From NCBI GenBank assembly GCA_902784865.1, contig CACZWL010000017.1:1-51687 (forward strand): a DNA stretch of 51,687 nt, written 5' to 3'. The position numbers were made by a program, and so were the translations under genes. Below, piece by piece: positions 5,212-39,368 of the stretch. Source of the DNA: an uncultured Bacteroidota bacterium. Lineage in GTDB: Bacteria; Bacteroidota; Bacteroidia; Bacteroidales; P3. Position 1 is the first letter of the stretch, and each line of letters opens with the position of its first letter. The notes below the pieces were generated by a model, which made no database searches, was not told the origin of the DNA, and saw nothing but the letters and a program-made list of their open reading frames with translations.

Positions 5212-5343
5212 GGGTATCCGGCAGGCAACTGGTAGATGTCTGGTAGGTATCTAGTAGGTATCTGGTAGGTGAATACTTCGACTCTTTCCCATCATTTCCC
5301 ATCGATGGGAAAATCGGGGAACTTGTCATTTGGCGCGATTTGA
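5212..5343 (+). repeat. dispersed intergenic repeat, copy A (with tail)
   Basis: Four 11-bp units, the last ggtatctggta, run into ggtgaatacttcgactc, then tttcccatcat and the perfect palindrome TTTCCCATCGATGGGAAA, then a tail aacttgtcatttggcgcg. Copies C and D carry the same tail. It fills the gap between the DUF58 gene and the thioredoxin gene. Confidence 0.9.
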
Positions 5344-5369
5344 GCTACTTGATTTCTACCTGACTGGTT

Positions 5370-5684
5370 TCAGAGAAGAGCGTTCAGCTTCTCGGTGAGG
5401 GTCTCTTTGGCGACGAGGCCGACGGTCTTGTCGACGGGCTGACCGCCTTTGAAGAAGAGGACGGTGGGGACGCTGCGGATGCGGAAACGGGCGGCCAGCT
5501 CGGGGCACTCGTCGACATCGGCGGCTCCGACGACGGCGCGGCCTTCGAATTCGGCGGCGACTTCCTCAATCTTGGGAGCCAGCGCTTTGCAGGGACCACA
5601 CCAGGTGGCGCCGAAGTCAATCATGACGGGTTGGGAACCGGCGAGCAGTTCGTCGAAGTTCTGTTCGGTGACTTTGATTTCCAT
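5370..5684 (-). CDS. trxA: thioredoxin
   Basis: Small cytosolic disulfide reductase of 104 aa, the standard thioredoxin length. The redox motif WCGPC is at 28-32, the buried Asp equivalent is in the VMIDFGA strand, and cis-Pro73 follows in SVPT. No signal sequence is present, so it is the cytosolic form rather than a periplasmic TlpA type. It stands alone between dispersed repeat A and der. No TAnnTTTG box is obvious upstream. Confidence 0.95.
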   Translation of the reverse strand: MEIKVTEQNFDELLAGSQPVMIDFGATWCGPCKALAPKIEEVAAEFEGRAVVGAADVDECPELAARFRIRSVPTVLFFKGGQPVDKTVGLVAKETLTEKLNALL

Positions 5685-5759
5685 TGTTTTATCTTTTTAT
5701 TGTTGTTTATTGTTTTGAAATGTCTCTGAATCAAGCCGAGCAAATTCCATGCCAAAGCA

Positions 5760-7064
5760 CTATTTGGCACGGAAGTATATGGTCATCGGCACGCCGTGGA
5801 AGTCCCAGAGTTCGCGCATGCGGTTCTCGACGAAGCGCTTGTAGGGGTCGCGGACATACTGCGGCAGGTTGCAGAAGAAGACGAACTGGGGGTAGGGGGT
5901 TGGGAGTTGGGTGATGTATTTGATTTTGACCCACTTGCCTTTGACCGAGGGGGGCGGGTTCTGCTCCTTGACGATGGGCAGGAGGGTGTCGTTGAGTTCG
6001 GCGGTGGAGATGCGGCGCGAGCGGGCCTCGTAGACGGCGCGGGCGGTCTCGAGGACCTTGAAGATGCGCTGCTTGTTGATGACGGAGGTGAAGATGATGG
6101 GCACATCGTCGAAGGGGGCGATGCGCGAACGGATCAGCTCCTCGAAGTCGCGGTGCGTGTTGTGGTCTTTCTCGACGAGGTCCCACTTGTTGACGACGAT
6201 GACGACGCCCTTGTTGTTGCGCTGGACGAGCGAGAAGATGTTGAGGTCCTGCTGCTCAAGGCCTTGCGAGGCATCGAGCATGAGGATGCAGACGTCGGCG
6301 GCCTCGATGGAGCGGACGGAGCGGAGGACGGAGTAGAACTCGAGGTTCTCGGACACCTTGCTCTTGCGGCGGAGGCCGGCGGTGTCGACGAAGTTGAAGT
6401 CGAACCCGAAGAGGTTGTAGCGGCTGTAGACAGAGTCGCGCGTGGTGCCGGCGATGGGGGTGACGACGGAGCGGTGCTCGCCGGTTATCATATTGATAAA
6501 GGAGGACTTGCCGACGTTTGGGCGGCCGACGATGGCGATACGCGGCAGGCCGTCCTCGGGGTCGGGGTCGCCGACGGGAAAGTCGTGGACCAGCGCGTCG
6601 AGGAGCTCGCCGGTGCCGCTGCCGGTGATGGAGGCGATGGGGTAGGGGTCGCCGAGGCCGAGGGCGTAGAACTCGCCGAGGGCATCCATCTGGGCGGGAT
6701 TGTCGACCTTGTTGACGACGAGCAGCACGGGCTTGGGCTGGCGGCGCAGCATGTCGGCCACATCCTCGTCCATGGGGGTGAGGCCGTCGCGGGCGTCGAC
6801 GAGGAAGAGGATGGTGTCGGCCTCGTCGATGGCCAGGCTGACCTGCCGGCGGATTTCCGTCTCGAACTGGTCGTCAGAGCCGATGACGTAGCCGCCGGTG
6901 TCGATGACCGAGAAGTGGCGCCCGTTCCAGTCGGAATGGCCGTACTGGCGATCGCGGGTGACGCCTGCCGTGGGGTCGACAATGGCGTCGCGGGTCTGCG
7001 TGAGGCGGTTGAAGAGGGTTGATTTGCCGACATTGGGGCGGCCGACAAGGGCGACGATATTCAT
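5760..7064 (-). CDS. der: ribosome-assembly GTPase Der (EngA)
   Basis: Double GTPase needed for 50S subunit maturation. Two complete G domains are visible: GRPNVGKST (8-16), DTGG, NKVD, then GRPNVGKSS (180-188), DTAG (227-230) and NKWD (292-295). The C-terminal KH-like domain follows and ends in YFRAK. At 434 aa it has the family length. It begins 41 nt after the DUF5723 gene on the same strand. Nothing is unusual. Confidence 0.97.
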
Positions 7065-7104
7065 AGGACTCTAGGTATCAGTGGGTTGGATGGCGGTTAA
7101 GCGT

Positions 7105-8610
7105 TTATTCTTCGTTGGGCGTCAGGATGGGGGCCACGGGATCGAAGCCGGAGACTTTCTTCTTACCGCCCTTGCCGATGAGGAGGTTGCAGCCGAACTT
7201 GATGTTGCAAGCCTTCGACTCGACGAGGCGGATGGAGGAGATATAGTCGGCCATCACATAAGTCTGCATCGCGCCTCCCAGCGACAGGATGACACCGGCA
7301 CCGGGGTTGAAGGCGTCGAGGTGCTTGCCGTCGTAGACGACGGAGGAACCGGCGACCACCTCGAGCCAGTTGAAGAGGTTGACCGAGACGGAGAGCGTGG
7401 TGTTGAAGCGGAAGGTGTTGGAGAAGGACTTCTCGAAGCCGTCGATGATGCTGCCGGTGGAGAAGAGGCCGCGGTCGAGCTGGCCGTGGAAGAGCAGGCC
7501 GGCGCGGAAGAGGTGGGCGAAGGAGTAGGAGGCACCCAGGTTGAAGGTGGTGGGGATGGGGAACCAGTAGCCGTTGGTGTCGTTGACAAAGCGCGGTTTC
7601 ATGCCGTCGATACGCTCCTTAAGGTAGTCAGAGATAGAATCCATATAGAATTGGCCGTCGTTGAGCACGGTGTTGATGTTGACACCGTCGAAATAGATCT
7701 CACCCTGTCCGTTTTCGGGCACGAAGGCATAGGTGTTCTTGGTCCAGTGTATACCTTTGGTGATGTTGTTGACGGCAAGCGAGATCGAGAGGGGGCCGAG
7801 GTCCCAGCGGGCTCCGACGTCGAAAGCCAGACCGCTGTTGGCCAGAAGGTTGTTGAGGATGTCTTCGGGTCCGTTGAAGAGGAACTTGCCTTGTGACGTG
7901 TCGTAGGGAACGACGGCAGAACCCTGCAACTCGTAGTAGGCACGGACTGTCATGCGGTCGAGGTCTTCGTCGGAGTGGAGGGTGAGGTGAGTCTTGTCGG
8001 TCTGAATGTTGAGGACACCGGAGAGGAGCTTGGCGTGGACACCGACGGTGAGGTTCAGCTTGTCGATATGGAAGGCGGCACCCACAGAGGACTCGATATA
8101 GGACTGGAGGTTGAAGATGTCACCATTGAGGAGCTTGACCTCAGGGTGCGGCACTCCATCGTCGCCGATGTTGCCTTCGAGCAGGGCATTGACCGTGGAG
8201 ATGGGCAGGCCTATGGAGAAACCGTTGCAAAGGCGGAGGTTGAGATTCAGATAGAGGTGCTTGATTTTCAATCCGAAACCCAACAGCTGCACATTGGCGC
8301 CCATGCGGAACTGGTTGTCCTCGCTGAGGGTGTGGAGGATAGAGTCGACGTTGATTATGGTGGTCTTCGAAGCCTTGTCGTAGCGCAGCACGTCGTTGAG
8401 CGCCAGGGGCATACCAAACTGGAAATCGACGCCGGGAAGCATCAGGTAGAAGGTATTCTTGGCCGGATGGAAGGCCGGGTTGAGCAGGTTGCTCTGCGGC
8501 GTACGGATAGTGTGGTAGAAGAGGTTGTTGGTCTCGTCGAACTGGGCGTTGGCCGTTCCCGTCGCGAGGACAAGGGCGGCGGTCAATATGATGGATTTAA
8601 GCTTTCTCAT
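7105..8610 (-). CDS. DUF5723 family outer-membrane protein
   Basis: A 501-aa exported protein with a signal peptide cleaved after TANA (residue 22). The mature part has alternating amphipathic strands ending in aromatic residues, as in outer-membrane beta barrels, and the pattern (QSNLLNPAFHP near the start) is that of the Bacteroidetes DUF5723 family. No enzymatic motif is seen. It follows the lipoprotein gene by 27 nt and likely forms a two-gene envelope operon with it. The function is unknown; a surface or transport role is an inference. Confidence 0.82.
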   Translation of the reverse strand: MRKLKSIILTAALVLATGTANAQFDETNNLFYHTIRTPQSNLLNPAFHPAKNTFYLMLPGVDFQFGMPLALNDVLRYDKASKTTIINVDSILHTLSEDNQFRMGANVQLLGFGLKIKHLYLNLNLRLCNGFSIGLPISTVNALLEGNIGDDGVPHPEVKLLNGDIFNLQSYIESSVGAAFHIDKLNLTVGVHAKLLSGVLNIQTDKTHLTLHSDEDLDRMTVRAYYELQGSAVVPYDTSQGKFLFNGPEDILNNLLANSGLAFDVGARWDLGPLSISLAVNNITKGIHWTKNTYAFVPENGQGEIYFDGVNINTVLNDGQFYMDSISDYLKERIDGMKPRFVNDTNGYWFPIPTTFNLGASYSFAHLFRAGLLFHGQLDRGLFSTGSIIDGFEKSFSNTFRFNTTLSVSVNLFNWLEVVAGSSVVYDGKHLDAFNPGAGVILSLGGAMQTYVMADYISSIRLVESKACNIKFGCNLLIGKGGKKKVSGFDPVAPILTPNEE

Positions 8611-8637
8611 AGATCGATAGGTATTCTGTTCTTATCC

Positions 8638-10038
8638 TTATTTTCCGAAACTGGGCAATTCAAAGCCGTGGTCGAATGACACTTTGGGATGAATCTGCAA
8701 GTACAACTTCAAGCGAAGGAAGTCGTTGCGCGAGAGGACTACGTGGCGCTGCTGGGCCGTGCCGAAGCGGAATGAAACCCTTATCTTTCGTGCTTGCTTC
8801 AGCATATTGACCTCGTCGTTCGATATGGTGGCAATAAGTCGCGACAGGACCGGAGACTCAACCATGCAGACCTCGGAACCTGGTTCGGTAGGCACAATGT
8901 TTGGGGCATTGATAGCAGTGTCGCCGGGCTCCTTGTCCAACTTGATGTCGAACAGAGGGCTCTCGTCCTCGGCAAGGAAGGTAGCGTTGAGCATAAACTC
9001 CAACGGGATGCCATTGGTGCAGGCAAAGATGATGCGGGCATCGTTGATGTCGGCCTCGAGGTCTTCCGAGATCGAGCTGATTAAAGAGTCGAGATTAGCC
9101 CTACTTCCATCAACGTCGAGGTCATAGGAAAAATGGAGATGGTTGACACGCAGGTTGAACGGAACGGCAACATCAAGCGCGCCCGAGTAGTCGAAGCGGG
9201 TCATGCGCAGACTGTCCAGCGCCTCGACGAAGTGGACATTCTGTATGTTGGAAGAGACTATTTCAGACGAAGCATTGAGGCGCATACGGAAAGTGGTGAT
9301 GAGCCTCTTCGGGAATGCATTGATGATGGGGGCAACATCGATGCTGTCGAAATGTTCTTGTGCTCCTGTGGTGATGTCACTAATGACAATGGGATTGGAC
9401 GAGAAGTCTAAAAAGTCTTGTGTATTGCCATCATAGTCAACATACTTCACAATAAGGCTGTCGAAAGTCGCATTGACATATTCGTTGAACATGTCCTTGA
9501 TACTCTCACTTGCGTAATGGCCTTTGACTGCAGCGCTCAAATTGAGCCAGAGATGCGAGATGGATATCGAATCGCGATATTCCACAATCTTCTGGATGTC
9601 GGCATTGTCGAAGATATCTATATCGATAGTGTCGCGGAATATGGTGTCTATAGAATACCATACGGGATCGGCATCCTTCGAACCCAGCAGGGCAGGGGAG
9701 GGCCGCGAAGCTGAGCGCGGGGTTGCGTACACACCTTGCAAGCTCAGCGGGACAATAGACCCTTCGGTCTCCGCATGGTAGCGCACCGTCAGCAGGTTGG
9801 TCGTCGTGTCGAGATAGCCTGTGTAGTCGGAGCTCAAGCGCGAGATGATATCGTTGAAATTCAACTCTCCATAGGCGATCGGAAATCCATAGTATGGGTC
9901 TATTTCGCCTTGTACCCGGAACGGATTCTTAAAAATCTCCAAATCGTCGTCCTTGATACACGACGTAACAGCAGCCGTCAGCATCAGCGCAGCCGCCACT
10001 ATCGGCATCTTCTTCTTCAGTCGGTAAGTCTTTTTCAT
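8638..10038 (-). CDS. hypothetical lipoprotein
   Basis: Exported lipoprotein of 466 aa: a basic, hydrophobic N-terminus leads to a lipobox ending at Cys27 (AVTSC). The residues after Cys (IKDDD) include the acidic run associated with surface lipoproteins in Bacteroidetes, so outer-surface display is possible. The rest is a beta-rich protein of no family I know. It is the first gene of the unit 10038-7105, with a promoter -7 box at 10084-10091. A weak alternative start is Met11. Confidence 0.8.
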   Translation of the reverse strand: MKKTYRLKKKMPIVAAALMLTAAVTSCIKDDDLEIFKNPFRVQGEIDPYYGFPIAYGELNFNDIISRLSSDYTGYLDTTTNLLTVRYHAETEGSIVPLSLQGVYATPRSASRPSPALLGSKDADPVWYSIDTIFRDTIDIDIFDNADIQKIVEYRDSISISHLWLNLSAAVKGHYASESIKDMFNEYVNATFDSLIVKYVDYDGNTQDFLDFSSNPIVISDITTGAQEHFDSIDVAPIINAFPKRLITTFRMRLNASSEIVSSNIQNVHFVEALDSLRMTRFDYSGALDVAVPFNLRVNHLHFSYDLDVDGSRANLDSLISSISEDLEADINDARIIFACTNGIPLEFMLNATFLAEDESPLFDIKLDKEPGDTAINAPNIVPTEPGSEVCMVESPVLSRLIATISNDEVNMLKQARKIRVSFRFGTAQQRHVVLSRNDFLRLKLYLQIHPKVSFDHGFELPSFGK

Positions 10039-10083
10039 TCTATATCAATTTTTTATATATAATCAATACTATATAGCGGTCTG

Positions 10084-10091
10084 CAAAGGTA
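10084..10091 (-). promoter_or_regulatory. -7 box for the lipoprotein/DUF5723 operon
   Basis: On the minus strand the sequence reads TACCTTTG, matching TAnnTTTG, 46 nt before the start at 10038. The -33 element is not clear. Confidence 0.55.
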
Positions 10092-10123
10092 CGAATTTTT
10101 TTTCGATTTGCAGCATCTTTTTG

Positions 10124-10897: not shown

Positions 10898-10906
10898 CGC
10901 GCTGTC

Positions 10907-13900
10907 CTACCTGATTAACGTGATATCTCCCTTGAAATCATTCTCCTCGCCATTGTGGCACTTAATATGGCAGGTATACGTATACACCCCCGGCAGACAC
11001 TGCTTGTTGCGGTACACCCCGTCCCACTGGCACCCCCCTGCCTCCTGGCACCTGAACACACACTCTCCCCAGCGGTTGAACAACGCAAAATCCAACTCCG
11101 AAAGCACCGTATTCGTCAAATCAAGCACATCGTTCACCCCATCGCCATTCGGCGTAAACGCATTGGGAATCACAAAATCCGGCGCCCCGCAGCTCACAGC
11201 CTTGGCCCTGATGCGCACCGTGGCCGTAGCCTCGCAGCCGCCCGACCTTGCAGTGACCACATACACTGTCAGCGTATCCTCAGGCACCACCTCCGTCGTC
11301 CGGCTGCTCCGACTCGCAATCTCGCCGCCACCCGTCCAGCGGTAACTGGCTCCCGCCACCTCGCCAGCCGTCAGCGTCACAGCCTCCCCCAGGACGATAT
11401 CATACCTGTCCGCCCACGCCGCAAAACCATCCAGACTGCGGTTCCTCACCACCCTCGTCGTATCGGCAAACGGACAACCCTCGTCGTTCGCCAGCTCCAG
11501 CACATAGACACCCTCGCACAAACCAGTCAGCAACGTATCGACCGACACACCCTCGCCCCCAACCACATGCACCCACGCCTCGCAGCTGTCCCCGCAGAGC
11601 TCCGCCTCCACCTCCTTCGTATACGTAGGCTCCGCCTTCGTCGGCACTCGCGCCCAGCCCGACACATCGCAACCGTAGCCCCGCGCATGATACATCACCA
11701 CCACACCCTCCGGCAAACCACCGTACACCAGCGTGTCGCCAACCACCGTCGGCGCACCCTGCGGCAACCCGCCGACCGTCACCGTCACCGTCACCGAATC
11801 CAGATCCACACCCTCTCCCAGCACCACCCGGGCGCTGCCGTCCCTGTCTCCGTGGCACCGCGGCCCTGTCACCATCAGCGTATCCACAAGTCGGTACGCC
11901 GTCACATCAAACGTATCCAGCTCCGCACATCCCGGAGCTGACACCCGCAGCACATACTGACCCGTCTCCCGCACCCACGGATTCGCAATCGTACCGTCAC
12001 TCACCCCCCCCGTCAACCACTCATACGTCACACCCAACCGCGGCTGCAACCCAATCTGCACACCACGCTCCGCACACGACGTCAACTCCTCAAATCGGCC
12101 TCCGCCACCGACAACATGCAGCACATGGCGCTGCGTATCAGCCTCCGTACACCCACCAGGCATCAGCGCCACAAGCATCACCTCATACCTGCCACCCTCC
12201 GCATACGTATGCGTCGGATTGCGCTCCGTCGACCGCCCCCCGTCGCCGAAATCCCACACAAACGCTTCTCCTCGCCCAGTATTCTTGAACCTCACCGTAT
12301 ACGGCGCACAACCCGCCACCGGCGGCACAAACTCCGCCACCGGAAAATCATCCGTCACATTGAACCGGAACAACGCATTATTGCAATTCGTCGACCCGTT
12401 CACCTCGCTCCACGCACCAGCTGTCACCGGAAAATCGCCAAAACCGCCACACGACGCACACACCGACTGGTACAGCGTCGCCAGCTTGTCGAACCGCGAC
12501 GTCCCACCGTCCACATGATCGCCGCCCCCGCGGAAATTATTGTCCGCACCGCGATGCGGCTCGCCGAAAAACGTCGCATACTCCAGATGCTGGCAGTTCT
12601 CGTCGACCGACAGAATATAGAAATCCTGCCCGTCCGTAGAATCACACCACGCACCCGCCGTCGTCTCCATCCCCGTCGTTCCCAGCGTACCCCACCGCAC
12701 ACTGCCGTAACCCACAAAATCACGCCCCCACCCCGCAGCATACACCCGGTTGCACACATCCGCAGCAAAAGCCGTCGGCGACAGATTGATCCTCCCAGGC
12801 GTGCCGAACAACGTACTCCACTCTCGCCCGCTCAAATCCGGCAACAACCGCATCAGCAACATACCACTGTTCATCACACCATAACCCGCATTATACATGA
12901 AATAGCCATCCCCCGTCGGCTCCGTCTGCCCGAACACAAACACCTCGTCCCGTCGACCCGCACGCACAAAATACAACTGGTCGTACCCCCCCAACCCAAC
13001 ATACGTCATCCCCATCAGACGCTCCCCACCATGCGAAACCTTACCCACAAAACCATCCGCACCACCGCCCCCATACGCCACCTGCCACGCCGAATCCGTC
13101 ACCGGAAAATCCACACTGTTCGTACCACCGCACACCAACAGATTATAATCCCCGTCCACATCCACCGAATACACAGCATCATCCCCGCTGCCGCCAAGAT
13201 ACGTACTCCACAACAAATTGCGCAGATTATAGTCCAGCTTGAACACCACACCGTCCTGGCCGCCACCGCTCACAGCCTGCAGGCACCCCCCCGTCGTCGG
13301 AAAATCAGCCGACATCGTCGTCGAACCCACATACACATTGTTCAAATCATCCGTCACAATCTCACCCCTCGCACCGTCGCCGTAATTGTAATACAGCGAA
13401 TCGTTCCCCTGCATCAGCACACCATACCCGTTATTATAATACCCCTTGAAATTCAAACCGTCATTACCCGTACCCCCCACCAGCGTCGACGCCTCCAGCC
13501 GCTGCCCGTCAGCACTCAGCCGGCACACAAAAATATCACTCCCGTTCGGATACCCAATCGTCGACGACTCATAACTCAGACCACTCCCACCCCTGAACAC
13601 CTCCCCATACGCACCCTCCGTCGTCGGAAAATCGGACGAACCCGTCGTACCGAACACCAGCAACTCATCAAACCCGTTCACATACAGACTGTGCGGCATA
13701 TCCGCCGCCCCACCGCCCAGATACGTCGCAAACAAACGCTGCTCACCCGTCGAGTCGAACTTGAACACACCCACATCCACACCCCCGCCAGGCACCTCCT
13801 GATACGCGCCCGTCGACACAGGATAACCCACATTGAACACCAAACCCGCCGTATACGCATTCTTCTCCGAATCATACGTCGCCGTCGTACCCCAATTGTC

Positions 13901-14659
13901 CGCCGTCGAACCCGTATACGTCGAAAAAATCAACATCGGATCCACCACCAGCTCTCGCCCGCGGTCATACTCACCGACCTCAACCCACGCCCTGCGGCCC
14001 TTCACACGCCACCGGCTCGCCACCTCGACCTCCTCACCCTCAACCACCTGATACGCATACGGACGCAACTCCGTCACATCGCGCACCGTCGTACTGACCA
14101 CCAGACTCCCACTCCCGTCAACCCGCAACCCGTCAACACCCTCATACTCAACCACCACCACACCCGCATCAGCACCCGCCGCAACAACAAAATTATACTT
14201 CAACGCACCCTCCTCGCCATACACCTCCAAATCCACACCCTCATACAAACCCCTGTACCTCACCACACCAAACGAACGCACCCCGGAACGCCAACGACCC
14301 GCATCCTTGCCCAGAAAAAAATTACTATACCCACCCAGCAAACCCTCCCCCTCCGGACGCACATCGCCACCACCCACAAACACCATCCGGTACGCATGAT
14401 AACCCACCGGCCCCACACCCACAGCCGGATGACCCAACTCGCCCCGCAACGCCACAGTCACACGCCCGCACTCCGCAAACACAGCACCACCCGCAACCTG
14501 CGCCTCATAGCAAACACGGCTGTCCCACTGACCCGCATTCTCGACAAACGACACCCGCCGGCCACGCTCCACACCCTCGCGCCCCGCACCCAGGCACACC
14601 CCGAAAAAACTCATCAAAAAAATGAAAACCAGAACTTTATATGACAACATATACTTCAT
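10907..14659 (-). CDS. T9SS type B secreted protein with SBBP repeats and PKD domain
   Basis: Large exported protein of 1250 aa. It has a signal peptide (1-25), an N-terminal FVENAGQWD domain typical of SBBP-repeat proteins, beta-propeller SBBP repeats (about 250-760, with recurring STYLGG and DFPTT units), a PKD domain near 790-860 (YTVRFKNTGRGEAFVWDFGD), and a type B sorting domain in the last 90 residues (PNAFTPNGDGVND). Type IX secretion would export it through the outer membrane. Codons end mostly in G or T, whereas neighbouring genes strongly prefer C. It is followed by the Usp-like gene and preceded by a tandem repeat. Confidence 0.93.
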   Translation of the reverse strand: MKYMLSYKVLVFIFLMSFFGVCLGAGREGVERGRRVSFVENAGQWDSRVCYEAQVAGGAVFAECGRVTVALRGELGHPAVGVGPVGYHAYRMVFVGGGDVRPEGEGLLGGYSNFFLGKDAGRWRSGVRSFGVVRYRGLYEGVDLEVYGEEGALKYNFVVAAGADAGVVVVEYEGVDGLRVDGSGSLVVSTTVRDVTELRPYAYQVVEGEEVEVASRWRVKGRRAWVEVGEYDRGRELVVDPMLIFSTYTGSTADNWGTTATYDSEKNAYTAGLVFNVGYPVSTGAYQEVPGGGVDVGVFKFDSTGEQRLFATYLGGGAADMPHSLYVNGFDELLVFGTTGSSDFPTTEGAYGEVFRGGSGLSYESSTIGYPNGSDIFVCRLSADGQRLEASTLVGGTGNDGLNFKGYYNNGYGVLMQGNDSLYYNYGDGARGEIVTDDLNNVYVGSTTMSADFPTTGGCLQAVSGGGQDGVVFKLDYNLRNLLWSTYLGGSGDDAVYSVDVDGDYNLLVCGGTNSVDFPVTDSAWQVAYGGGGADGFVGKVSHGGERLMGMTYVGLGGYDQLYFVRAGRRDEVFVFGQTEPTGDGYFMYNAGYGVMNSGMLLMRLLPDLSGREWSTLFGTPGRINLSPTAFAADVCNRVYAAGWGRDFVGYGSVRWGTLGTTGMETTAGAWCDSTDGQDFYILSVDENCQHLEYATFFGEPHRGADNNFRGGGDHVDGGTSRFDKLATLYQSVCASCGGFGDFPVTAGAWSEVNGSTNCNNALFRFNVTDDFPVAEFVPPVAGCAPYTVRFKNTGRGEAFVWDFGDGGRSTERNPTHTYAEGGRYEVMLVALMPGGCTEADTQRHVLHVVGGGGRFEELTSCAERGVQIGLQPRLGVTYEWLTGGVSDGTIANPWVRETGQYVLRVSAPGCAELDTFDVTAYRLVDTLMVTGPRCHGDRDGSARVVLGEGVDLDSVTVTVTVGGLPQGAPTVVGDTLVYGGLPEGVVVMYHARGYGCDVSGWARVPTKAEPTYTKEVEAELCGDSCEAWVHVVGGEGVSVDTLLTGLCEGVYVLELANDEGCPFADTTRVVRNRSLDGFAAWADRYDIVLGEAVTLTAGEVAGASYRWTGGGEIASRSSRTTEVVPEDTLTVYVVTARSGGCEATATVRIRAKAVSCGAPDFVIPNAFTPNGDGVNDVLDLTNTVLSELDFALFNRWGECVFRCQEAGGCQWDGVYRNKQCLPGVYTYTCHIKCHNGEENDFKGDITLIR

Positions 14660-14681
14660 AACATACTACTTATTACAACTG

Positions 14682-14689
14682 CAAATATA
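14682..14689 (-). promoter_or_regulatory. -7 box for the T9SS protein gene
   Basis: Minus-strand TATATTTG (TAnnTTTG) lies 23 nt before the start at 14659. The -33 region would fall at the edge of the tandem repeat 14697-14800. Confidence 0.55.
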
Positions 14690-14696
14690 CGAAAAA

Positions 14697-14800
14697 AAAT
14701 AAAAACACCAACCCCACCGCAAAAAAAAACACCAACCCCACCGCAAAAAAACATCACACCCAACCGCAAAAAAACATCACACCCCACCGCAAAAAACACC
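14697..14800. repeat. tandem repeat of about 23-24 bp
   Basis: Four to five head-to-tail units of the form a(5-9)cacc or a(7)catcac followed by (a)ccccaccgc. Units are 24, 23 and 23 bp long, with A-tract length and a few bases varying. In transcript sense for the downstream gene they read GCGGTGGGGTTGGTG plus a T-tract. The array lies directly upstream of the T9SS gene promoter. Confidence 0.85.
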
Positions 14801-14810
14801 ACCCGCCCGA

Positions 14811-14910
14811 TAGGTATCTGGCAGGTATCTTGTTCGACTCTGGTAGGTATCTGGTAGGTGAATACTTCGACTGTTTCCCATCATTACCCCCCCCCCATGG
14901 GAAATGATGG
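14811..14910 (+). repeat. dispersed intergenic repeat, copy B (no tail)
   Basis: 11-bp units ggtatctggca, ggtatcttgtt, cgactctggta and ggtatctggta, then ggtgaatacttcgactg and tttcccatcatt. The central palindrome is damaged by a run of ten C (14886-14896 region) before atgggaaatgatgg. It has no conserved tail. The ttgttcgactctggta variant is shared with copy E. Confidence 0.85.
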
Positions 14911-14918
14911 ATACTTTT

Positions 14919-16400
14919 TCAGCGACGACGGTAAAGGGCAATGCGCGACACTGTCGGGTCGATAGTCCCAACAAGCTGATAATGAGACAGCGTGGCGCTG
15001 TCGATAGAGGTCTCGGGCGTCTCGCCGCCATAGCCCGCCACCATCCAGGGCGGCAGCGTGGGCGCGGCGAGGGGACTGTGCACGTCTTTCCAGTCGGGCG
15101 GGAAGATGATGCGGTTCATCTGCACAATGCCGTTGCACGGCAGGACGTGGTAGTCGTCGTAGCGATTGAGGATGAGGTTGTAGTTCCAGATGCTGTCGCG
15201 CTCGGCCTCGGGGACTTGGGTGAAGAGCGCGGCCGTCTGCTCAAGGCGCTGACGGTCAGACTTCTGGCGGCTGGGCATAGCCACATCTTTGCACCTCATG
15301 TAAATGCGCGACAAGGCCCTCGGGGCCTCCAGTTGCATGTCTTTGCCCACGGGCATCAGCATTACCAACGCAAAACCAACCACAAAGGAGCGTTTGCCAC
15401 CGACAGCCAGCAGCAGCACCAGGAAGGGCATCAGGACGATATAGTAATGCTCGAAGTAATTGGGGCCAAACAGTATGGTTTCCAGCAACATGGCGGGCAC
15501 GATTGCCCACATCGCAGCGCGCTGCCCCGAGCGCCAGAGCATGACACACAGCGCAACGGTCAGCACAAGCAATATGGTGCGCGGCAACTCGGTGAAGATA
15601 CTGGTAACGAGCGACATGACGCTGCCGGTATACTCGGCGTTGACTTGGAAGTAGGCATGCCAGAAGTCGGCCAGAACATGGTTGTTCATCAGCCAAAAGA
15701 GCACTGGCACCGCCAAAACGGTAGCCGAAAAGAACATCCATGCGGCCGTAAAAACCTGTACCACATCTCTCTTGGATATCAGCCACATACAATATCCCGT
15801 CATTAAACCGCCGACAATGGCCACCGCATCGTTCAGGCGGATGAGTGCCACCGCCGCAAAGAGCATGCCGAGGATGAACGGGAAGATAGGTACACGCGAA
15901 CTCTCGGTCGGCGCATGGCGTTGCATACCTCTGATCGTCAGATAGATGGCAAGCGTCAGGAACGGCAACATCCACTCCTCGCACATATTGCCCTCGCAGA
16001 GGAACATCGAGTAGGGGAGCAGCGCGACGAGCACAGCCACCATCGAGCGCAACCCCGAGGCGAAGAGGCGAGCCGTCTTGTACAACAGCCAAAGCGTCAG
16101 TGAGTTGAACACCCACTGCAGCAGGAATACACCCGTGCGGCCGCCGATGAGCATGCCGAGGGCGTTGATGAGGTAGAGCAGGGGACCTTTGTTGTCGAAG
16201 AGGTCGCGGTAGGGCATGCGCCCATGCAGTATCCCGAGACCCATTTCCTGAAAGATGGCACTGTCGTAGCCGCCGTGGTAGTAGAGCGGCGACGTGGAGG
16301 TCGACATCAGGAGCAAAAGCGGAAGTGCCAGTAACGGAAACACCACTGGACACCAGCGACTTTCGCAGAACTGATTAATCCTTTGCTTCAACCCGTTCAT
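14919..16400 (-). CDS. multi-spanning membrane glycosyltransferase (GT39/ArnT-like)
   Basis: Integral inner-membrane protein of 493 aa with about ten hydrophobic segments. The first loop has HGGYDSAIFQEMG and YRDLFDNKGP, the acidic loop pattern of GT-C glycosyltransferases of the dolichyl-phosphate mannosyltransferase type, with catalytic Asp candidates. A soluble C-terminal region follows from about 380. The start at 16400 (MNGLKQRIN) overlaps the prfB stop by 4 nt (ATGA), so translation is coupled; the longer frame to 16805 runs antiparallel-free through prfB and is not credible. The acceptor is unknown. Confidence 0.82.
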   Translation of the reverse strand: MNGLKQRINQFCESRWCPVVFPLLALPLLLLMSTSTSPLYYHGGYDSAIFQEMGLGILHGRMPYRDLFDNKGPLLYLINALGMLIGGRTGVFLLQWVFNSLTLWLLYKTARLFASGLRSMVAVLVALLPYSMFLCEGNMCEEWMLPFLTLAIYLTIRGMQRHAPTESSRVPIFPFILGMLFAAVALIRLNDAVAIVGGLMTGYCMWLISKRDVVQVFTAAWMFFSATVLAVPVLFWLMNNHVLADFWHAYFQVNAEYTGSVMSLVTSIFTELPRTILLVLTVALCVMLWRSGQRAAMWAIVPAMLLETILFGPNYFEHYYIVLMPFLVLLLAVGGKRSFVVGFALVMLMPVGKDMQLEAPRALSRIYMRCKDVAMPSRQKSDRQRLEQTAALFTQVPEAERDSIWNYNLILNRYDDYHVLPCNGIVQMNRIIFPPDWKDVHSPLAAPTLPPWMVAGYGGETPETSIDSATLSHYQLVGTIDPTVSRIALYRRR

Positions 16401-17506: not shown

Positions 17507-17524
17507 AACGTGCAAAATAAAAAA

Positions 17525-17620: not shown

Positions 17621-17653
17621 AAATCTCTGTTTTCTTATCTCAAAAACGGAGTG

Positions 17654-22885: not shown

Positions 22886-22995
22886 AGGTATCTGGTAGGT
22901 GTCTGGTAGGTATCTGGTAGGTGAATACTTCGACTCTTTCCCATCATTTCCCATCGATGGGAAAATCGAGGAACTTGTCATTTGGCGCGATTTGA
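22886..22995 (+). repeat. dispersed intergenic repeat, copy C (with tail)
   Basis: Three 11-bp units (ggtatctggta, ggtgtctggta, ggtatctggta), ggtgaatacttcgactc, the palindrome TTTCCCATCGATGGGAAA, and the tail aacttgtcatttggcgcg. It lies between the chromate transporter and the argS promoter. Confidence 0.9.
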
Positions 22996-23077
22996 ACACA
23001 TTTCGATACAAAACACTGGAAATCAACAAAAAGAAGAAGCAACTGAAAAAAGTTCGGAATTATCGGGGAAAAATTCG

Positions 23078-24896: not shown

Positions 24897-24907
24897 GAGT
24901 CTGCGCC

Positions 24908-28678: not shown

Positions 28679-28770
28679 ACGGTATATTTAACGTACCAAT
28701 TATAATAATATTGTGGAGAGGGTGCAAAAAATCCGTCGGCAGGGTCGCCGGCGGTGTCGGTCGGACGGCA

Positions 28771-28879
28771 GGCATCTGGTAGGTATCTGGTAGGTATCTG
28801 GTAGGTGAATACTTCGACTCTTTCCCATCATTTCCCTTCGATGGGAAAATCGGGGTACTTGTCATTTGGCGCGATTTGA
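28771..28879 (+). repeat. dispersed intergenic repeat, copy D (with tail)
   Basis: Three 11-bp units (ggcatctggta, then ggtatctggta twice), ggtgaatacttcgactc, then tttcccatcatttcccttcgatgggaaa, where one base breaks the palindrome, and the tail acttgtcatttggcgcgat. It lies in the divergent gap 28679-28992, which otherwise holds only the promoter below. Confidence 0.9.
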
Positions 28880-28960
28880 AGAGGTTGACACATAACACGA
28901 ACACAACCAGCGTTTTAAAAACAACAGCGTTTTTTATGGGGCAGATTGAGTTTTTTTTGC

Positions 28961-28968
28961 TATCTTTG
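28961..28968 (+). promoter_or_regulatory. -7 box for the GroES-like gene
   Basis: TATCTTTG (TAnnTTTG) lies 24 nt before the ATG at 28993. The -33 position falls in a T-rich stretch without a clear TTTG. Confidence 0.5.
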
Positions 28969-28992
28969 CAGTTTGATTATTTACGACCGAGT

Positions 28993-29352: not shown

Positions 29353-29362
29353 AATCAAGAAT

Positions 29363-32664: not shown

Positions 32665-32689
32665 CAGTCCCGAAGCCTACCCATCATAT

Positions 32690-34234: not shown

Positions 34235-34267
34235 GTCTCAACCGCCACTAATGGTTTTTTTCATCGG

Positions 34268-34306
34268 CGTGGTGCCCCCTACACACAGGGGCACCACGCC
34301 CCTTTT
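34268..34306 (+). terminator. Rho-independent terminator
   Basis: Perfect 11-bp stem (cgtggtgcccc 34268-34278 with ggggcaccacg 34288-34298), 9-nt loop, then ccccTTTT. It follows the adhesin pseudogene by about 34 nt. A further small hairpin (gccgg/ccggc, about 34395-34412) lies in the same gap; nothing else is seen before the tgt promoter. Confidence 0.8.
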
Positions 34307-34450
34307 ATGCTGCCCCATGCAGCACCTTTGCAGCGCTCCAGCAGCAGGGTGGCGGCGGGGAATTGTCAATAGGTGTCAAAATGGCCGTTTTCGCCGGTTT
34401 TAACCCGGCAAAACTGCAAGTAGGCGGCTTCGGCGTGCCCGGCGACACTT

Positions 34451-34485
34451 TTTTTGCACACAATCGAAAAAAAAGCGTATCTTTG
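34451..34485 (+). promoter_or_regulatory. promoter of tgt
   Basis: TTTTTG (34451-34456), 21 bp, TATCTTTG (34478-34485). Good match to the Bacteroidetes consensus, about 90 nt before the chosen ATG at 34575. Confidence 0.7.
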
Positions 34486-34574
34486 CATTTGCCAACTACC
34501 GCACGGACGGCCTCCGCGCGCAGTTGCATATATTTGTAAGACAAGGAGTTAACGAAACAACATACGCAACCTCA

Positions 34575-35701
<1,127 letters not shown>

Positions 35702-35705
<4 letters not shown>

Positions 35706-36568
35706 ACAGATTCCTGAAATCGGCGGCGATCACCCTCCTGATGGCGTGCGCAGTGATGGTAGCCATGGGCCTTGCGGTCAACCAGATACCGCTGAAGAAC
35801 GTGTACACCTTCAAATACAACTACATGGAGCAGAACTGCAGCTCCATCAAGACGTTGCTGATGGGGCACTCGCAATTCGAGTGGGGCCTCAACCCCCACG
35901 CCTTTGGCGACAGCACGTTCAACCTGGCCATGAGCGGTAGGGTCATCTACTACGACGAGGCGCTGCTGAAGCGCTACATGCCACGCATGGAGAACCTCAA
36001 GACCGTCATCCTGGCACTGCACTACTCGCTGGTAGGCTTCGACGGATTCTACGGCGACGACAAAGACCGCGCCGCCTTCATCTACCACTACTACCGCGAC
36101 ATGCACATCCCCTACCCCAAATACTTCTACCACTACATACCCTACCACTACAAGGAGCTGGAAAACGACGGTGTGCCCAAAGACGTGGACGAACTGGGAT
36201 ACAGGAAGATGACCAAGGAATTCCAGGGTGCCGACAGCTGGTGGGCGCACAACCAATGGGGGCAGGAGATGACATGCGCCTCGCTTGCCGAGATCGCCAA
36301 GCTGTGCCAGCAGCATGGCGTGAGGCTGATAGTGGTCACCCCGCCCAGCGCGCAGGCCTTCCTGAACATGACCACCGAAAGCGGCATGCGTACACTGGAA
36401 GAGACCGTGGCGATGGTGCAGCAGGACTACCCGTTGGAATACCACAACTACATAGAAGACAGCGCATTCCGCGAGCACAAGCTTTACTACGACGCCACCC
36501 ACCTCAACCACACCGGCGCCACCCTCTTTGCCGAGCGCCTCATCAAGGACTTCGGCATCGAGCGCTAG
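35702..36568 (+). CDS. hypothetical membrane-anchored SGNH-like protein
   Basis: 288 aa starting at 35702 (MNRFLKSAAITLLMAC), overlapping the tgt stop (ATGA). One N-terminal hydrophobic segment (about 7-27) acts as signal or anchor, so the bulk is periplasmic. LLMGHSQFEWGLNPHAFGDS (about 53-72) resembles block I of DltD/SGNH-type proteins with the catalytic Ser, and a late YYDATHLNHTGA (about 263-274) gives the Asp-His pair of block V. The chain between is rich in Tyr and His. Envelope-polymer acyl transfer or hydrolysis is a reasonable guess, not proven. Confidence 0.72.
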
Positions 36569-36630
36569 GGGTGTTGATTTCTTGTTGATATTTTCATCGG
36601 CTTTTGCACTTGCACGCCCAATGTTTTGAG

Positions 36631-36638
36631 TATTTTTG
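36631..36638 (+). promoter_or_regulatory. -7 box for the glycosyltransferase gene
   Basis: TATTTTTG (TAnnTTTG) lies 23 nt before the ATG at 36662, with a TTG at 36610-36612 about 18 bp upstream. Confidence 0.5.
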
Positions 36639-36661
36639 TACATTAAAATTCAAGTGCATAG

Positions 36662-37816
36662 ATGTTTGATTTTTCTACATTTCTCACTGATAGCTACGCA
36701 GTTGCGCTCGCTGCCCTCATGGTGGTGGCTCTGGTTGTTTTGTGTCTGTACTACGGGCTTTACCACTTCCGCGTGGGCCGTTGGCAGCTGAAACCCAAAA
36801 CCACGGGCATGCCGACGGGCGAGCCGCCCGTGTCGGTCGTGCTGACCGCCCGCAACGACGCCAACTGGCTGAAAGAGAACCTGGTATACCTTCTGGAACA
36901 AGACTATCCCAACTTCGAGGTCGTCGTGGTCGACTACCTGAGCCAGGACGACACCCAGTTCGTCCTCAAGCTGCTCAAAGACTACTACCCCCACCTGAAA
37001 GTCGTCCCCTTCAAGGAGGACGTCAACCTCTTCCAAGGCAAGAAATACCCCCTCTCCATCGGCATCAAGTCGGCCAAGAACGACATACTGCTGCTGGCCG
37101 ACCCCGACTGCACGCCTAACAACATGCAGTGGCTGCGCGGCATGGTCAAGGGCTACGCCGCCTCCGGCACACAGATTGTGCTGGGCTACTGCGGGTTGAA
37201 GCGCACCAAGACCCTCCTTGGCGTCATGCAGCAGTACGACAACCTGGCATACAGCACCCACTACCTGGGCAGCGCCCTGCTGGGGCACCCCTACACCGGC
37301 ACGGGCCGCAACCTGAGCTACCGCCGCCAGTTCTTCTTCCGCCAGGGCGCCTTCATCCGCCACTACAACGTGGCCGCCGGAAGCGACGACCTCTTCGTCT
37401 ACCAAAACGCTGACAAACAGAACACTGCCATCAGCATCACCCCCGACGCCCTGCTCACGACCGAGCCGCAGAAGACCTTCGCCCAGTGGCACCACCTGCG
37501 GCTGGAGCGCGTGGCCACGCGCAACTGGCACTCCGTCGCCAGCCGCCTCTCCGAGGACATACTGCCGCTGGCCAACATCGTCTTCTACGCCGCAGCCGTC
37601 ATGCTGCTGGCGCGCGCAGGCTCCCCCTGGGGCGTGGCACTGATAGCGCTGCTGCTCAAATGGGCTTGGCAAATCGTCGCCATGGCGCAGCCCGCCAGGC
37701 GTTTCGACGCCGGCCTCGTGTACCTCGCCGCTCCGCTTCTTGAAATTTATTTTATCATCGCAAATACTATTTTGATACTTATTCCGTTACCCAATAACAG
37801 GAAATTCAAAAAATAA
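36662..37816 (+). CDS. family 2 glycosyltransferase, membrane-bound
   Basis: 384 aa with one N-terminal span (about 12-32), a GT-A domain and three C-terminal hydrophobic segments (from about 295). PVSVVLTARNDANWL opens the GT2 fold, DP-D (LLLADPDCTP, about 137-146) is the metal-binding DXD-like site, and GTGRNLSYRR with AAGSDDLFV follow. The active site faces the cytosol with a membrane-linked product, as in processive or undecaprenyl-linked GT2 enzymes. The sigma-factor gene begins directly after its stop. Confidence 0.88.
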   Translation: MFDFSTFLTDSYAVALAALMVVALVVLCLYYGLYHFRVGRWQLKPKTTGMPTGEPPVSVVLTARNDANWLKENLVYLLEQDYPNFEVVVVDYLSQDDTQFVLKLLKDYYPHLKVVPFKEDVNLFQGKKYPLSIGIKSAKNDILLLADPDCTPNNMQWLRGMVKGYAASGTQIVLGYCGLKRTKTLLGVMQQYDNLAYSTHYLGSALLGHPYTGTGRNLSYRRQFFFRQGAFIRHYNVAAGSDDLFVYQNADKQNTAISITPDALLTTEPQKTFAQWHHLRLERVATRNWHSVASRLSEDILPLANIVFYAAAVMLLARAGSPWGVALIALLLKWAWQIVAMAQPARRFDAGLVYLAAPLLEIYFIIANTILILIPLPNNRKFKK

Positions 37817-38422
37817 GTGGAGCCGAACACACCATCCGACCGACTACAGCTTGACTATCAGCTTGTTTGCGATGCCCGGGAACGTGGCAGCCGCAAAGCC
37901 TATGCCGACCTCATGGCCTCCTACCGCGAGCCGCTCTACCTGCTGCTGCTCCGCATGACCCGCAACACCACCACGGCCGACGACCTCACCGTCGAGACCT
38001 TCAGCAAAGCCTTCCTCCAGCTCCACCGCTACGCCCCCACGGGCTCCTTCTCTTCCTGGCTCTTCTCCATCGGGGTCAACACCTACATCGACTACCTGCG
38101 CAAGCGGCGCCTCGACACCATACCCCTCTCCGACCTCTCCCACAACAGCGCCGGCGACTTCGTCGAATACCAGCTCCCCTCCGGACAGCCCAACCCCGAA
38201 GAAACCATGATACGCATGCAGCGCGACGAGTCGCTGAAACAGATTGTCTCTCAGCTCAAAGAGCCCTACCGCCGCATCATCGAGATGCGCTTCTACGAAG
38301 ACCTCTCCTACGAGGAAATCGCCGAGCGGCTGAAGATACCCCTGGGCACCGTCAAGGTGCGCCTCTCCCGCGCCAAAGCGCTCCTTTCCTCCATCATAGC
38401 GAAGAAAGGCGACGATTTATGA
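37817..38422 (+). CDS. ECF-type RNA polymerase sigma factor
   Basis: 201 aa starting with GTG immediately after the glycosyltransferase stop. Region 2 (about 25-95: LYLLLLRMTRNTTTADDLTVETFSKAFLQLHRY, then FSSWLFSIGVNTYIDYLRKRR) and region 4 (about 140-195: EPYRRIIEMRFYEDLSYEEIAERLKIPLGTVKVRLSRAK, the -35 reading helix-turn-helix) are present, and the length is that of a group IV sigma factor. No anti-sigma gene follows; the next gene is a GNAT enzyme, so regulation is unclear. Confidence 0.93.
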   Translation: MEPNTPSDRLQLDYQLVCDARERGSRKAYADLMASYREPLYLLLLRMTRNTTTADDLTVETFSKAFLQLHRYAPTGSFSSWLFSIGVNTYIDYLRKRRLDTIPLSDLSHNSAGDFVEYQLPSGQPNPEETMIRMQRDESLKQIVSQLKEPYRRIIEMRFYEDLSYEEIAERLKIPLGTVKVRLSRAKALLSSIIAKKGDDL

Positions 38423-38444
38423 ACCAAACACATTAATATAATAA

Positions 38445-38978
38445 ATGATAACATTCACAACCCTTGCTGAAAGCGACCATTCGCATTTCGCACAAAAACT
38501 CTTCGAAGAGGCATTCCCCGAGCAGGAACGCCCCCCTTTCAGTAGTCTCCGGCAGCGCGATGCCGGCAAATTCCATTTCCTTGTAGCCGAAAACGGCGAC
38601 CAGCCCGTCGGCATCCTCTCCTACTGGAACTTCCAGGACCTCATCTACATAGAGCATTTCGCCATCGCCCCCGAGCTGCGCAACCAGGGCATCGGCAAAG
38701 CCACATTCCTCTACTTCCTGTCGCAACAGACCAACCAAGTGGTCCTCGAGGTCGAGACCCCGCACAGCGAAGAGTCGGAGCACCGCATCGAATTCTACGC
38801 CTCCATGGGCCTCTTCCGCAACCCGCAGCCCTACACCCAGCCACCCTACCGCCAGGGCGGGCAGGAAGTCGACATGATCATCATGTCGAAATACGAACTC
38901 GACGACGACGAATTTTCCGAAATCCGCAACATCCTATACTCCGAAGTCTACCATTCCGGCAGCGTCGGCAACGAGTAG
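38445..38978 (+). CDS. GNAT family N-acetyltransferase
   Basis: 177-aa acyl-CoA-dependent acetyltransferase. The acetyl-CoA-binding motif A reads IEHFAIAPELRNQGIGKATFLYF (about 68-90), with the R/Q-x-x-G-x-G/A loop, and motif B is the EFYASMGLFRN turn (about 115-125). The C-terminus is acidic. The substrate is unknown. It is 22 nt downstream of the sigma-factor gene and probably in the same transcript. Confidence 0.88.
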   Translation: MITFTTLAESDHSHFAQKLFEEAFPEQERPPFSSLRQRDAGKFHFLVAENGDQPVGILSYWNFQDLIYIEHFAIAPELRNQGIGKATFLYFLSQQTNQVVLEVETPHSEESEHRIEFYASMGLFRNPQPYTQPPYRQGGQEVDMIIMSKYELDDDEFSEIRNILYSEVYHSGSVGNE

Positions 38979-39055
38979 CCTCAAAAAAAATACACAGTGC
39001 AACCGGCTAGCATTCAGACGGTTTTGACTTTTTCACCAAAAAAAACAAAAAAAAA

Positions 39056-39087
39056 TTTGGTCAGTATCTGAAAAGTTAGTACTTTTG
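39056..39087 (+). promoter_or_regulatory. promoter of the tRNA-Arg gene
   Basis: TTTGG (39056-39060), then TACTTTTG (39080-39087), with 20 bp between TTTG and TAnnTTTG. Close fit to the Bacteroidetes consensus, 39 nt before the tRNA. The preceding stretch 38979-39055 is A-rich and holds nothing else. Confidence 0.75.
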
Positions 39088-39126
39088 CACCCGATTTCAA
39101 GAGAAAAACAACGACGAAATCCAGAT

Positions 39127-39200
39127 GGCTCCGTAGCTCAACTGAATAGAGCATCTGACTACGGATCAGAAGGTTACAGGTTTGAATCCTGTCGGAGTCA
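39127..39200 (+). tRNA. tRNA-Arg(ACG)
   Basis: 74-nt cloverleaf: acceptor stem GGCTCCG with CGGAGTC (one G-T pair), anticodon stem CTGA/TCAG around loop CTACGGA giving anticodon ACG (read as ICG for CGN arginine codons), and T arm with GGTTTGAATCC. CCA is not encoded. It is followed at once by a terminator. Confidence 0.96.
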
Positions 39201-39205
39201 CAGAA

Positions 39206-39231
39206 GGAGAGGCTAGCCTCTCCTTTTTTTT
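39206..39231 (+). terminator. terminator of the tRNA-Arg transcript
   Basis: Stem ggagaggc / gcctctcc (39206-39213 with 39216-39223) with a minimal TA loop, extended by eight T. Confidence 0.9.
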
Positions 39232-39287
39232 ATTTCCGCCGCGCGCACCCGCATGCCTCCTCCCCTACCCTACGCCACCCTTCCCGC

Positions 39288-39368
39288 TTTTTCCCATCGA
39301 TGGGAAATGATGGGAAAGAGTCGAACTATTCACCTACCAGATACCTACCAGAGTCGAACAAGATACCC
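39288..39368 (-). repeat. dispersed intergenic repeat, copy E (no tail)
   Basis: On the minus strand: ggtatcttgtt, cgactctggta, ggtatctggta, ggtgaatagttcgactc, tttcccatcatttcccatcgatgggaa. It shares the ttgttcgactctggta variant with copy B and, like it, lacks the tail. It lies between the tRNA-Arg terminator and the next promoter. Confidence 0.88.

What the first reader, a model, noticed from the sequence alone, without database searches (positions are those of the whole stretch)
5212..39368. Dispersed intergenic repeat family with five copies in 52 kb
Five gaps (near 5212, 14811, 22886, 28771 and 39288) hold the same element of about 80-130 bp in both orientations: 11-bp units, ggtgaatacttcgactc, tttcccatcat, then the palindrome TTTCCCATCGATGGGAAA, exact in three copies (A, C, E). 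Copies sit only between genes, and neither protein nor transposase is near. The density suggests hundreds of copies per genome, like REP or MITE families, or a regulatory or structural site. I do not know it from the literature.
Basis: seen in the sequence. Interest (0 to 1): 0.8.

Follow-up and report, generated by a model that had tools for sequence, protein, structure and literature searches.

The report
Intergenic repeats rewritten in each species
A gut bacterium carries a short repeated DNA element between its genes that its sister species keep at many of the same places but spell differently throughout each genome, so something appears to rewrite the copies together.

Summary
In detail: five copies, both orientations, exact palindrome in three, all between predicted genes. 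The genome has about 72-79 copies, not hundreds. The palindrome is not the core. The element is compound: a left array of 11-bp units, a conserved linker (TA[C/G]TTCG[A/G]C) and a right array of 10-bp units, palindromic in only two of four species. Four of 120 genus genomes held carry the family. Their spellings ('dialects') differ, yet many copies lie at the same intergenic place in the same orientation. Where both flanks could be compared, a copy was present at 19 of 20 own sites and 0 of 16 control gaps. Own and G001 copies are no more alike at orthologous places (0.626) than elsewhere (0.624); own copies among themselves are 0.916 alike, flanks 84% identical. This is concerted evolution at inherited sites; G001-G115 is an exception. 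No RAYT gene sits beside a copy and no terminal inverted repeats were found. Two own copies look like dialect hybrids. Best reading: a non-autonomous, homogenised recognition element for an unidentified trans-acting factor. Factor and mechanism are inferred.

The parts
5213..5344 (+). Copy A: left 11-bp units 5213-5274, linker 5275-5284, right 10-bp units with palindrome 5285-5321, tail 5322-5344
   Evidence: orthologous place occupied in G115 (L283, same orientation, both flanks); G001 L196 has a degenerate array without linker there
14812..14919 (+). Copy B: left units 14812-14863, linker 14864-14873, right units with a broken palindrome 14874-14919
22887..22996 (+). Copy C: left units 22887-22926, linker 22927-22936, right units with exact palindrome 22937-22973, tail to 22996
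28771..28880 (+). Copy D: left units 28771-28810, linker 28811-28820, right units with palindrome (1 mismatch) 28821-28857, tail to 28880
39281..39379 (-). Copy E, reverse strand: left units 39379-39328, linker 39327-39318, right units with exact palindrome 39317-39281
   Evidence: (I1-I4); G115 L295 projected to the same place from one flank

Best explanation
A family of non-coding, non-autonomous recognition elements. Each has two tandem arrays with units near one helical turn (11 bp and 10 bp), joined by a conserved linker, so that units lie on one face of the DNA. A trans-acting DNA-binding factor reads the units. The elements arose or spread in the ancestor of a small clade and are inherited at many sites. 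Copies in one genome are repeatedly overwritten by other copies (gene conversion, or targeted insertion of a fresh copy into an old one), so the spelling shifts for the whole genome at once while the places stay. The better preserved units next to the linker and two hybrid copies suggest that rewriting starts at the linker and moves outward. Shown: architecture, dialects, shared places and orientation, loss of the orthology signal inside the element for most species pairs, outward decline in conservation. Inferred: the factor, its binding, the copying step and its direction.
For: 11-bp (left) and 10-bp (right) periods in all four species. 4 of 120 genus genomes carry the family, with differing spellings. 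Shared places: own-G001 22 of 74 own copies (19 same orientation), own-G023 9 (9), own-G115 4 (4). Both flanks found in one locus: copy present at 11 of 12, 5 of 5 and 3 of 3 own sites, against 0 of 12, 0 of 3 and 0 of 1 control gaps. 41-bp core identity within own 0.916; own-G001 0.626 orthologous and 0.624 elsewhere; own-G023 0.740 and 0.745; G001-G023 0.524 and 0.548; own-G001 flanks 83.6%. Agreement per left unit in own falls 1.00, 0.97, 0.88, 0.68, 0.44 away from the linker. Own L054 and L066 carry distal TAGGGG units of the G001/G115 type beside own-type proximal units (2 of 74). The three carriers on the ychF tree form one clade, 100/100. 0 of 203 copies lie wholly inside a predicted gene.
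Against: No candidate factor was found: no RVT_1 in G000, G001 or G115, no Y1 transposase beside copies; the only mobile-DNA family recurring near copies is Y1_Tnp itself. G001 and G115 left cores are close (orthologous 0.798, elsewhere 0.755, within G001 0.820, within G115 0.795), so those two barely differ on the left and keep some orthology signal. Outward decline could be stronger selection at the core. Conversion is not directly seen. 52 of 74 own copies have no G001 copy at the projected place (41 of them had no flank match in the G001 stretches fetched), so gain and loss also matter. On the ychF tree G001 pairs with G023 (97/93), while own resembles G023 and G001 resembles G115 in spelling, so dialect does not simply follow descent.
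Confidence: 0.5

Rival explanations
1. Recognition tags that work like DNA-uptake sequences or self-marks: a receptor or chromosome protein reads them, and biased uptake or selection makes all copies follow its changing specificity.
For: Differing species spellings around a conserved core at inherited places, as described for DUS dialects with a conserved core (PMC3630211, passages); both orientations; palindromes in two dialects.
Against: Some 72-97 copies of about 100 bp per genome in the three best-counted species, against thousands of roughly 10-base DUS that also lie in genes; 0 of 203 copies wholly inside predicted genes. Competence genes were not tested.
Confidence: 0.2
2. RNA-level element: the transcript of the region (terminator, processing or translation control) is what is selected.
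For: In gaps between co-directional genes the element runs against transcription 79 times and with it 30 times (p=3e-6; shared sites count more than once). Palindrome followed by T-rich sequence in many own and G001 copies. Slight excess between convergent genes over four species: 45 of 189 against 57 of 340 background gaps of at least 100 bp, the two sets overlapping. Pairing better than permuted in G001 (outer 13, inner 5 of 1000 permutations reach it) and in the own inner stem (22 of 1000).
Against: No long stem in G023 (0 of 34) or G115 (0 of 16). Own outer stem is no better paired than permuted (0.453 against 0.468), and the other effects are small (0.796 against 0.784; 0.734 against 0.699; 0.723 against 0.693). 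At Rfam's gathering cut-offs the window matches only SRP RNA and a tRNA.
Confidence: 0.15
3. An ordinary REP or MITE family that burst separately in each species; shared places are insertion hot spots.
For: Dispersed, intergenic, in both orientations, subfamilies with shared tails; many own copies are not shared with G001.
Against: Same orientation in 32 of 35 shared pairs; flank homology runs up to the element in several aligned loci; 0 of 16 control gaps hold a copy; no RAYT beside copies; no TIR found. In the interval before ychF 3 of 30 species have the element; of the other 27, 16 have only 26-32 bases from a motif near the upstream gene's end to the ychF start and six have 7-bp arrays.
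Confidence: 0.1
4. Neutral short tandem repeats that expand by slippage.
For: Short-period intergenic arrays of 7-11 bp are frequent in the ychF neighbourhoods read from 30 species.
Against: Slippage at one site cannot give the same linker and unit spelling at more than 70 sites, nor a second 10-bp array on the same side.
Confidence: 0.05

Closest known systems
BrickBuilt MITE of Porphyromonas gingivalis (PMC4596501)
   Same: Bacteroidales; intergenic; tandem units inside a dispersed element with conserved parts at the sides
   Different: 23-nt units, 19 copies, leader and tail of up to about 300 nt, TIRs like those of IS5-family elements. Here 11- and 10-bp units, more copies, no TIR found; the BrickBuilt TIR core was found near 0 of 74 own copies
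REP/RAYT palindromes (GTAG- and CGTC-tagged, PMC3733652)
   Same: Small, dispersed, extragenic, palindromic in two dialects
   Different: No tetranucleotide tag abutting the palindrome, no RAYT beside copies, palindrome missing in two species
TAACTGA heptamer arrays (PMC4679880) and cyanobacterial STRR repeats (the latter recalled)
   Same: Dispersed intergenic short tandem arrays, also in some Bacteroidetes
   Different: 7-bp units; no second array, linker or concerted change at shared sites in the abstract and passages I saw
DNA uptake sequence dialects of Neisseriaceae (PMC3630211)
   Same: Species dialects around a conserved core
   Different: Short single motifs in thousands of copies, also inside genes
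pMV158-type rolling-circle origin (PMC9943647)
   Different: A plasmid origin with its nick site in a hairpin loop, the repeats lying 84 bp from it. The likeness of TACTTCGAC to the pMV158 nick sequence is recalled, not tested; no initiator gene was sought

Membership tests
REP/RAYT | palindrome of 20-40 bp in many extragenic copies | tested here: inconclusive
   Perfect stem of at least 8 bp in 42 of 74 own and 34 of 79 G001 copies, 0 of 34 G023, 0 of 16 G115
REP/RAYT | GTAG or CGTC tag at one end of the palindrome | tested here: not met
   By eye on the own copies: palindrome bordered by CGACTC on the left and mostly GGATAC-, GGTTAC- or GGAAC-like letters on the right; GTAG recurs within the 11-bp units, away from the palindrome
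REP/RAYT | RAYT gene flanked by copies | tested here: not met
   20 Y1_Tnp matches in G000, G001, G023, G115 and G072: linker motif within 1.5 kb in 3, within 900 bp in 0
MITE | terminal inverted repeats | tested here: not met
   Longest inverted match between left 80 and right +60 to +140: mean 5.73, shuffled 5.93, n=74
MITE | target-site duplication | not tested
   Ends fade; no precise empty site compared
DUS dialects | species dialect of a repeated motif with conserved core | tested here: met
   G001 and G115 are close on the left side
DUS dialects | hundreds to thousands of short copies, also in genes | tested here: not met
   72-79 copies in own; 0 of 203 wholly inside predicted genes over four species
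pMV158-type origin | 11-bp tandem repeats | tested here: met
   lag-11 autocorrelation 0.51-0.70 in four species
pMV158-type origin | HUH Rep initiator that binds them | not tested
RT-driven element (DGR, retron, group II) | reverse transcriptase in the genome | tested here: not met
   RVT_1: 0 in G000, G001 and G115, 2 in G023

The most novel reading that the evidence does not exclude
A genus-wide class of paired 11-bp/10-bp recognition arrays whose letter code drifts in each species together with an unknown reader protein, in the way DNA-uptake dialects do, and which marks or organises the chromosome at inherited intergenic sites. The congener G072 has an 11-mer family of different spelling (ACCGTACATGC) with 171+154 pattern matches, overlapping ones included, and a more distant Bacteroidales MAG has ACCTACTAATC 11-mers, which fits a wider class.
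Probability: 0.25. Interest if true: 0.88.

Novelty: new variant of a known kind. Interest (0 to 1): 0.68.

Why it matters
Dispersed bacterial repeats are usually seen as copies that jump to new places and then decay. Here many places are kept and the letters are replaced throughout each genome. That makes a direct test possible: four sister species with differing dialects at shared loci, plus 116 genus genomes in which the pattern found no such family, should allow the gene that reads or rewrites the elements to be found.

Tried and rejected
RAYT/REP: Y1_Tnp genes exist but are not beside copies. Stems of at least 6 bp were listed on at least one side of all 20 Y1 loci of the array-bearing genomes (no chance control was run), with a clearly matching pair on both sides in about eight. 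Reverse transcriptase: no RVT_1 match in three of the four species. Hairpin RNA as the family's defining feature: palindrome missing in two species and small pairing effects. My first impression of strong compensatory change in single copies did not hold for the own outer stem. Phage or plasmid origin: no exact match in viral contigs to three dialect patterns, own, G023 and G001 (the G115 dialect was not searched), no match to copy C in plasmids or phages. Own-dialect pattern in GTDB contigs: none (that tool may leave out near genomes). Recurrent neighbouring gene family: eight clusters with at least three members in one species were printed; one is Y1_Tnp (three own entries, two of them the same gene fetched twice, and two in G001), none of the others looks like a mobiliser. 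Replication-strand bias could not be separated from gene strand. Literature: the ten searches listed no title or abstract start describing this element; the library holds only open-licence papers.
Full report
What is there. The window is one contig (C17) of a 2.40-Mb, 43-contig genome. A Bacteroidales small SRP RNA and four uncultured Bacteroidales MAG contigs as nearest named ychF relatives (83-90% identity, two of them titled as deer or sheep) place it in that order; the organism itself is not named. The genome has 72 copies of the left part with up to three mismatches, with none for the reversed control pattern, and 79 exact matches to a looser pattern. Genes came from my own dicodon predictor, not from an annotation; gene names used here (ychF, DPM1, kamE, atoD) are my reading of the translations, not the result of a search. 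All five window copies lie between predicted genes. Over four species 0 of 203 copies lie wholly inside a predicted gene. In the earlier own-only tally one of 74 copies (L077) was flagged as inside a predicted ORF under a 20-base tolerance, and nine copies, L077 among them, overlap an ORF end by 3-62 bases of their nominal span; the largest, L055, is an evident over-extension of the start.

Architecture. I fetched the 72 places (74 copies in my later set). The element reads: about four 11-bp units, the last running into a linker, then 10-bp units. In own spelling: (GGTAGGTATCT)n GGTAGGTGAAT A[C/G]TTCGACTC (TTTCCCATCA)n, the last often mirrored to make TTTCCCATCGATGGGAAA. Autocorrelation peaks at lag 11 on the left (0.70, 0.56, 0.64, 0.51 in own, G001, G023, G115) and lag 10 on the right (0.48, 0.46, 0.45, 0.49). 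Column agreement per left unit in own is 1.00, 0.97, 0.88, 0.68, 0.44 going outward. The palindrome is a dialect feature: a perfect stem of at least 8 bp in 42 of 74 own and 34 of 79 G001 copies, 0 of 34 in G023, 0 of 16 in G115.

Distribution. The hairpin pattern (TTTCCC..TTTCCC..GGGAAA, up to one mismatch) finds G001 and a single G006 contig-end copy among 58 congeners tested. The linker-centred pattern over 120 genus genomes finds 79 matches in own, 33 in G001, 97 in G023 and 16 in G115; seven other genomes have one match each. Six of these show no array on inspection; the seventh (G099) starts a contig and cannot be judged on its left. The reversed control rings once in six genomes. A G001-specific pattern gives 87 copies there. 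Many of the genomes are incomplete. The linker spellings are: own TAGGTGAATASTTCGAC, G001 TAGGGTAATAGTTCGGC, G023 TAGGTATTTACTTCGAC, G115 TAGGGGAATACTTCG[A/G]C. On a ychF tree of 30 species, own, G001 and G023 form one clade with support 100/100 (G115 was not on that tree).

Same places, different letters. I analysed 60 G001 stretches (79 copies), 25 G023 loci (34 copies of about 97) and 16 G115 stretches (16 copies). Own copies with a copy at the projected orthologous place: 22 of 74 in G001 (19 same orientation, 3 opposite), 9 in G023 (all same), 4 in G115 (all same). Two pairs of own copies project to one partner copy, and several rest on one flank only. The stretches were chosen because they hold copies, so I ran a control: 75 own intergenic gaps of at least 100 bp without a copy. 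Where both flanks fell in one fetched locus, a copy was there for 11 of 12 (G001), 5 of 5 (G023) and 3 of 3 (G115) element sites, and for 0 of 12, 0 of 3 and 0 of 1 control gaps. With flank hits on either side counted, controls gave 5 of 35, 5 of 14 and 0 of 4, against 22 of 33, 9 of 13 and 4 of 5 for element sites. The one both-flank exception, window copy A against G001, shows a degenerate array without linker at that place, while G115 has a full copy there. In several aligned loci homology runs up to the element on both sides, for example kamE-atoD, DPM1-ychF and L094/L289; in others (such as L079/L193 and L105/L141) the flank alignment is poor.

At these shared places the element mostly keeps no trace of common descent. 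Core identity own-G001 is 0.626 at 19 orthologous places and 0.624 elsewhere; own-G023 0.740 (9) against 0.745; own-G115 0.659 (4) against 0.676; G001-G023 0.524 (8) against 0.548; G023-G115 0.573 (2) against 0.582. Within species it is 0.916 (own), 0.820 (G001), 0.881 (G023), 0.795 (G115); flanks are 78-85% identical for the five pairs computed. That is the signature of concerted evolution. G001-G115 is the exception: 0.798 (7) against 0.755, close to their within-species values, so these two dialects are much alike on the left and differ mainly in the right array.

Transitional copies. Two of 74 own copies (L054, L066) carry distal units spelled as in G001/G115 (GGTAGGGGAAC, TAGGGGTTC) next to own-type proximal units; the reverse, own- or G023-type units in G001 or G115 by the pattern used, was seen in 0 of 79 and 0 of 16. 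L054 also has a right arm close to the G001 spelling. Tail modules move as well: at L061/L173 and L101/L160 the own copy carries a tail with a CGATTTGAACA-like end where G001 has ATACTTTT or TTACTTTT.

What it is not. Y1_Tnp matches number 2, 7, 6, 4 and 1 in G000, G001, G023, G115 and G072; of these 20 loci three have a linker motif within 1.5 kb and none within 900 bp. No terminal inverted repeats were found. RVT_1 gives no match in three of the four species. At gathering cut-offs the window matches no Rfam family but SRP RNA and tRNA. No match in plasmids or phages to copy C, nor in viral contigs to three of the four dialects.

Orientation. Between co-directional genes the element is antiparallel to transcription 79 times and parallel 30 times (p=3e-6). 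Shared sites are counted in each species, so the effective number is smaller; own alone is 27 against 11, G001 34 against 10, G023 12 against 3, G115 6 against 6. This may reflect selection at the RNA level or a replication-strand bias; I could not separate the two.

Wider class. The congener G072 carries a different 11-bp family, ACCGTACATGC, with 171+154 pattern matches that include overlapping matches in one array, and none in the three other genomes searched. Other congeners have 7-, 9- or 10-bp arrays in the intervals read around ychF. A more distant Bacteroidales MAG (L373, ychF 74% identical) has ACCTACTAATC 11-mers, close to own ACCTACCAGAT on the reverse strand. The viral-contig pattern search was built on ACCTAC, so its four hits do not independently confirm that motif.

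Judgement. The most economical account is a family of recognition elements kept at inherited places and homogenised within each genome by a sequence-specific process. The trans-acting factor is inferred. I rate a homogenised, copy-and-replace element at 0.5, an uptake- or self-tag system at 0.2, an RNA element at 0.15, ordinary bursts into hot spots at 0.1. Papers seen: PMC4596501 (outline, passages, section 5), PMC4679880 (outline with abstract, passages), PMC3630211, PMC3733652 and PMC9943647 (passages); the others in search listings only.

Noticed in passing
L051:1379-2009 and L052:1300-2300 (own genome, contig C5): Two RAYT-like Y1_Tnp genes flanked on both sides by unrelated palindromes (GCAGGGGTTTCAACCCCTGC; CCGTGGGC..GCCCACGG with GCCCCTACGGGGC), which look like a separate REP/RAYT system.
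   Followed up: partly
L311-L335 (G072): A congener has its own dispersed family of 11-bp arrays (ACCGTACATGC, first unit often ACCGTACTTCA) with 325 pattern matches, overlapping ones included.
   Followed up: partly
L203, L206, L208, L212, L217, L219 upstream of ychF: Six congeners without the element carry 7-bp tandem arrays of differing spelling in the interval before ychF.
   Followed up: no
L373:1264-1319; L440: 11-bp arrays beginning ACCTAC in a more distant Bacteroidales MAG and, found with a pattern built on ACCTAC, in four IMG/VR contigs (L440 has seven units), similar to the reverse strand of the own units.
   Followed up: partly
Dialect likeness (own with G023, G001 with G115) does not follow the ychF tree, which pairs G001 with G023; G115 was not on that tree.
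   Followed up: no
L111 (G006, contig end): A single G001-type hairpin sits at the end of one contig of an incomplete MAG: contamination or a real extra carrier.
   Followed up: no
window 14677-14816: A 22-24-bp tandem array (AAAAACACCAACCCCACCGCA) lies directly left of copy B (D2).
   Followed up: no
window 10907-14659: Long open frames on both strands (1250 aa on -, 842 aa on +) with a repeated CACCGGAAAATC-like motif; the + frame has no Pfam match.
   Followed up: no
L053, L057, L062, L069, L080, L096, L101 and others: A tail module with GGCGCGATTTGAACA or a close variant occurs on a subset of own copies; in a few (L059:9051, L071:424, L253) similar letters stand in place of the usual right array.
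   Followed up: no
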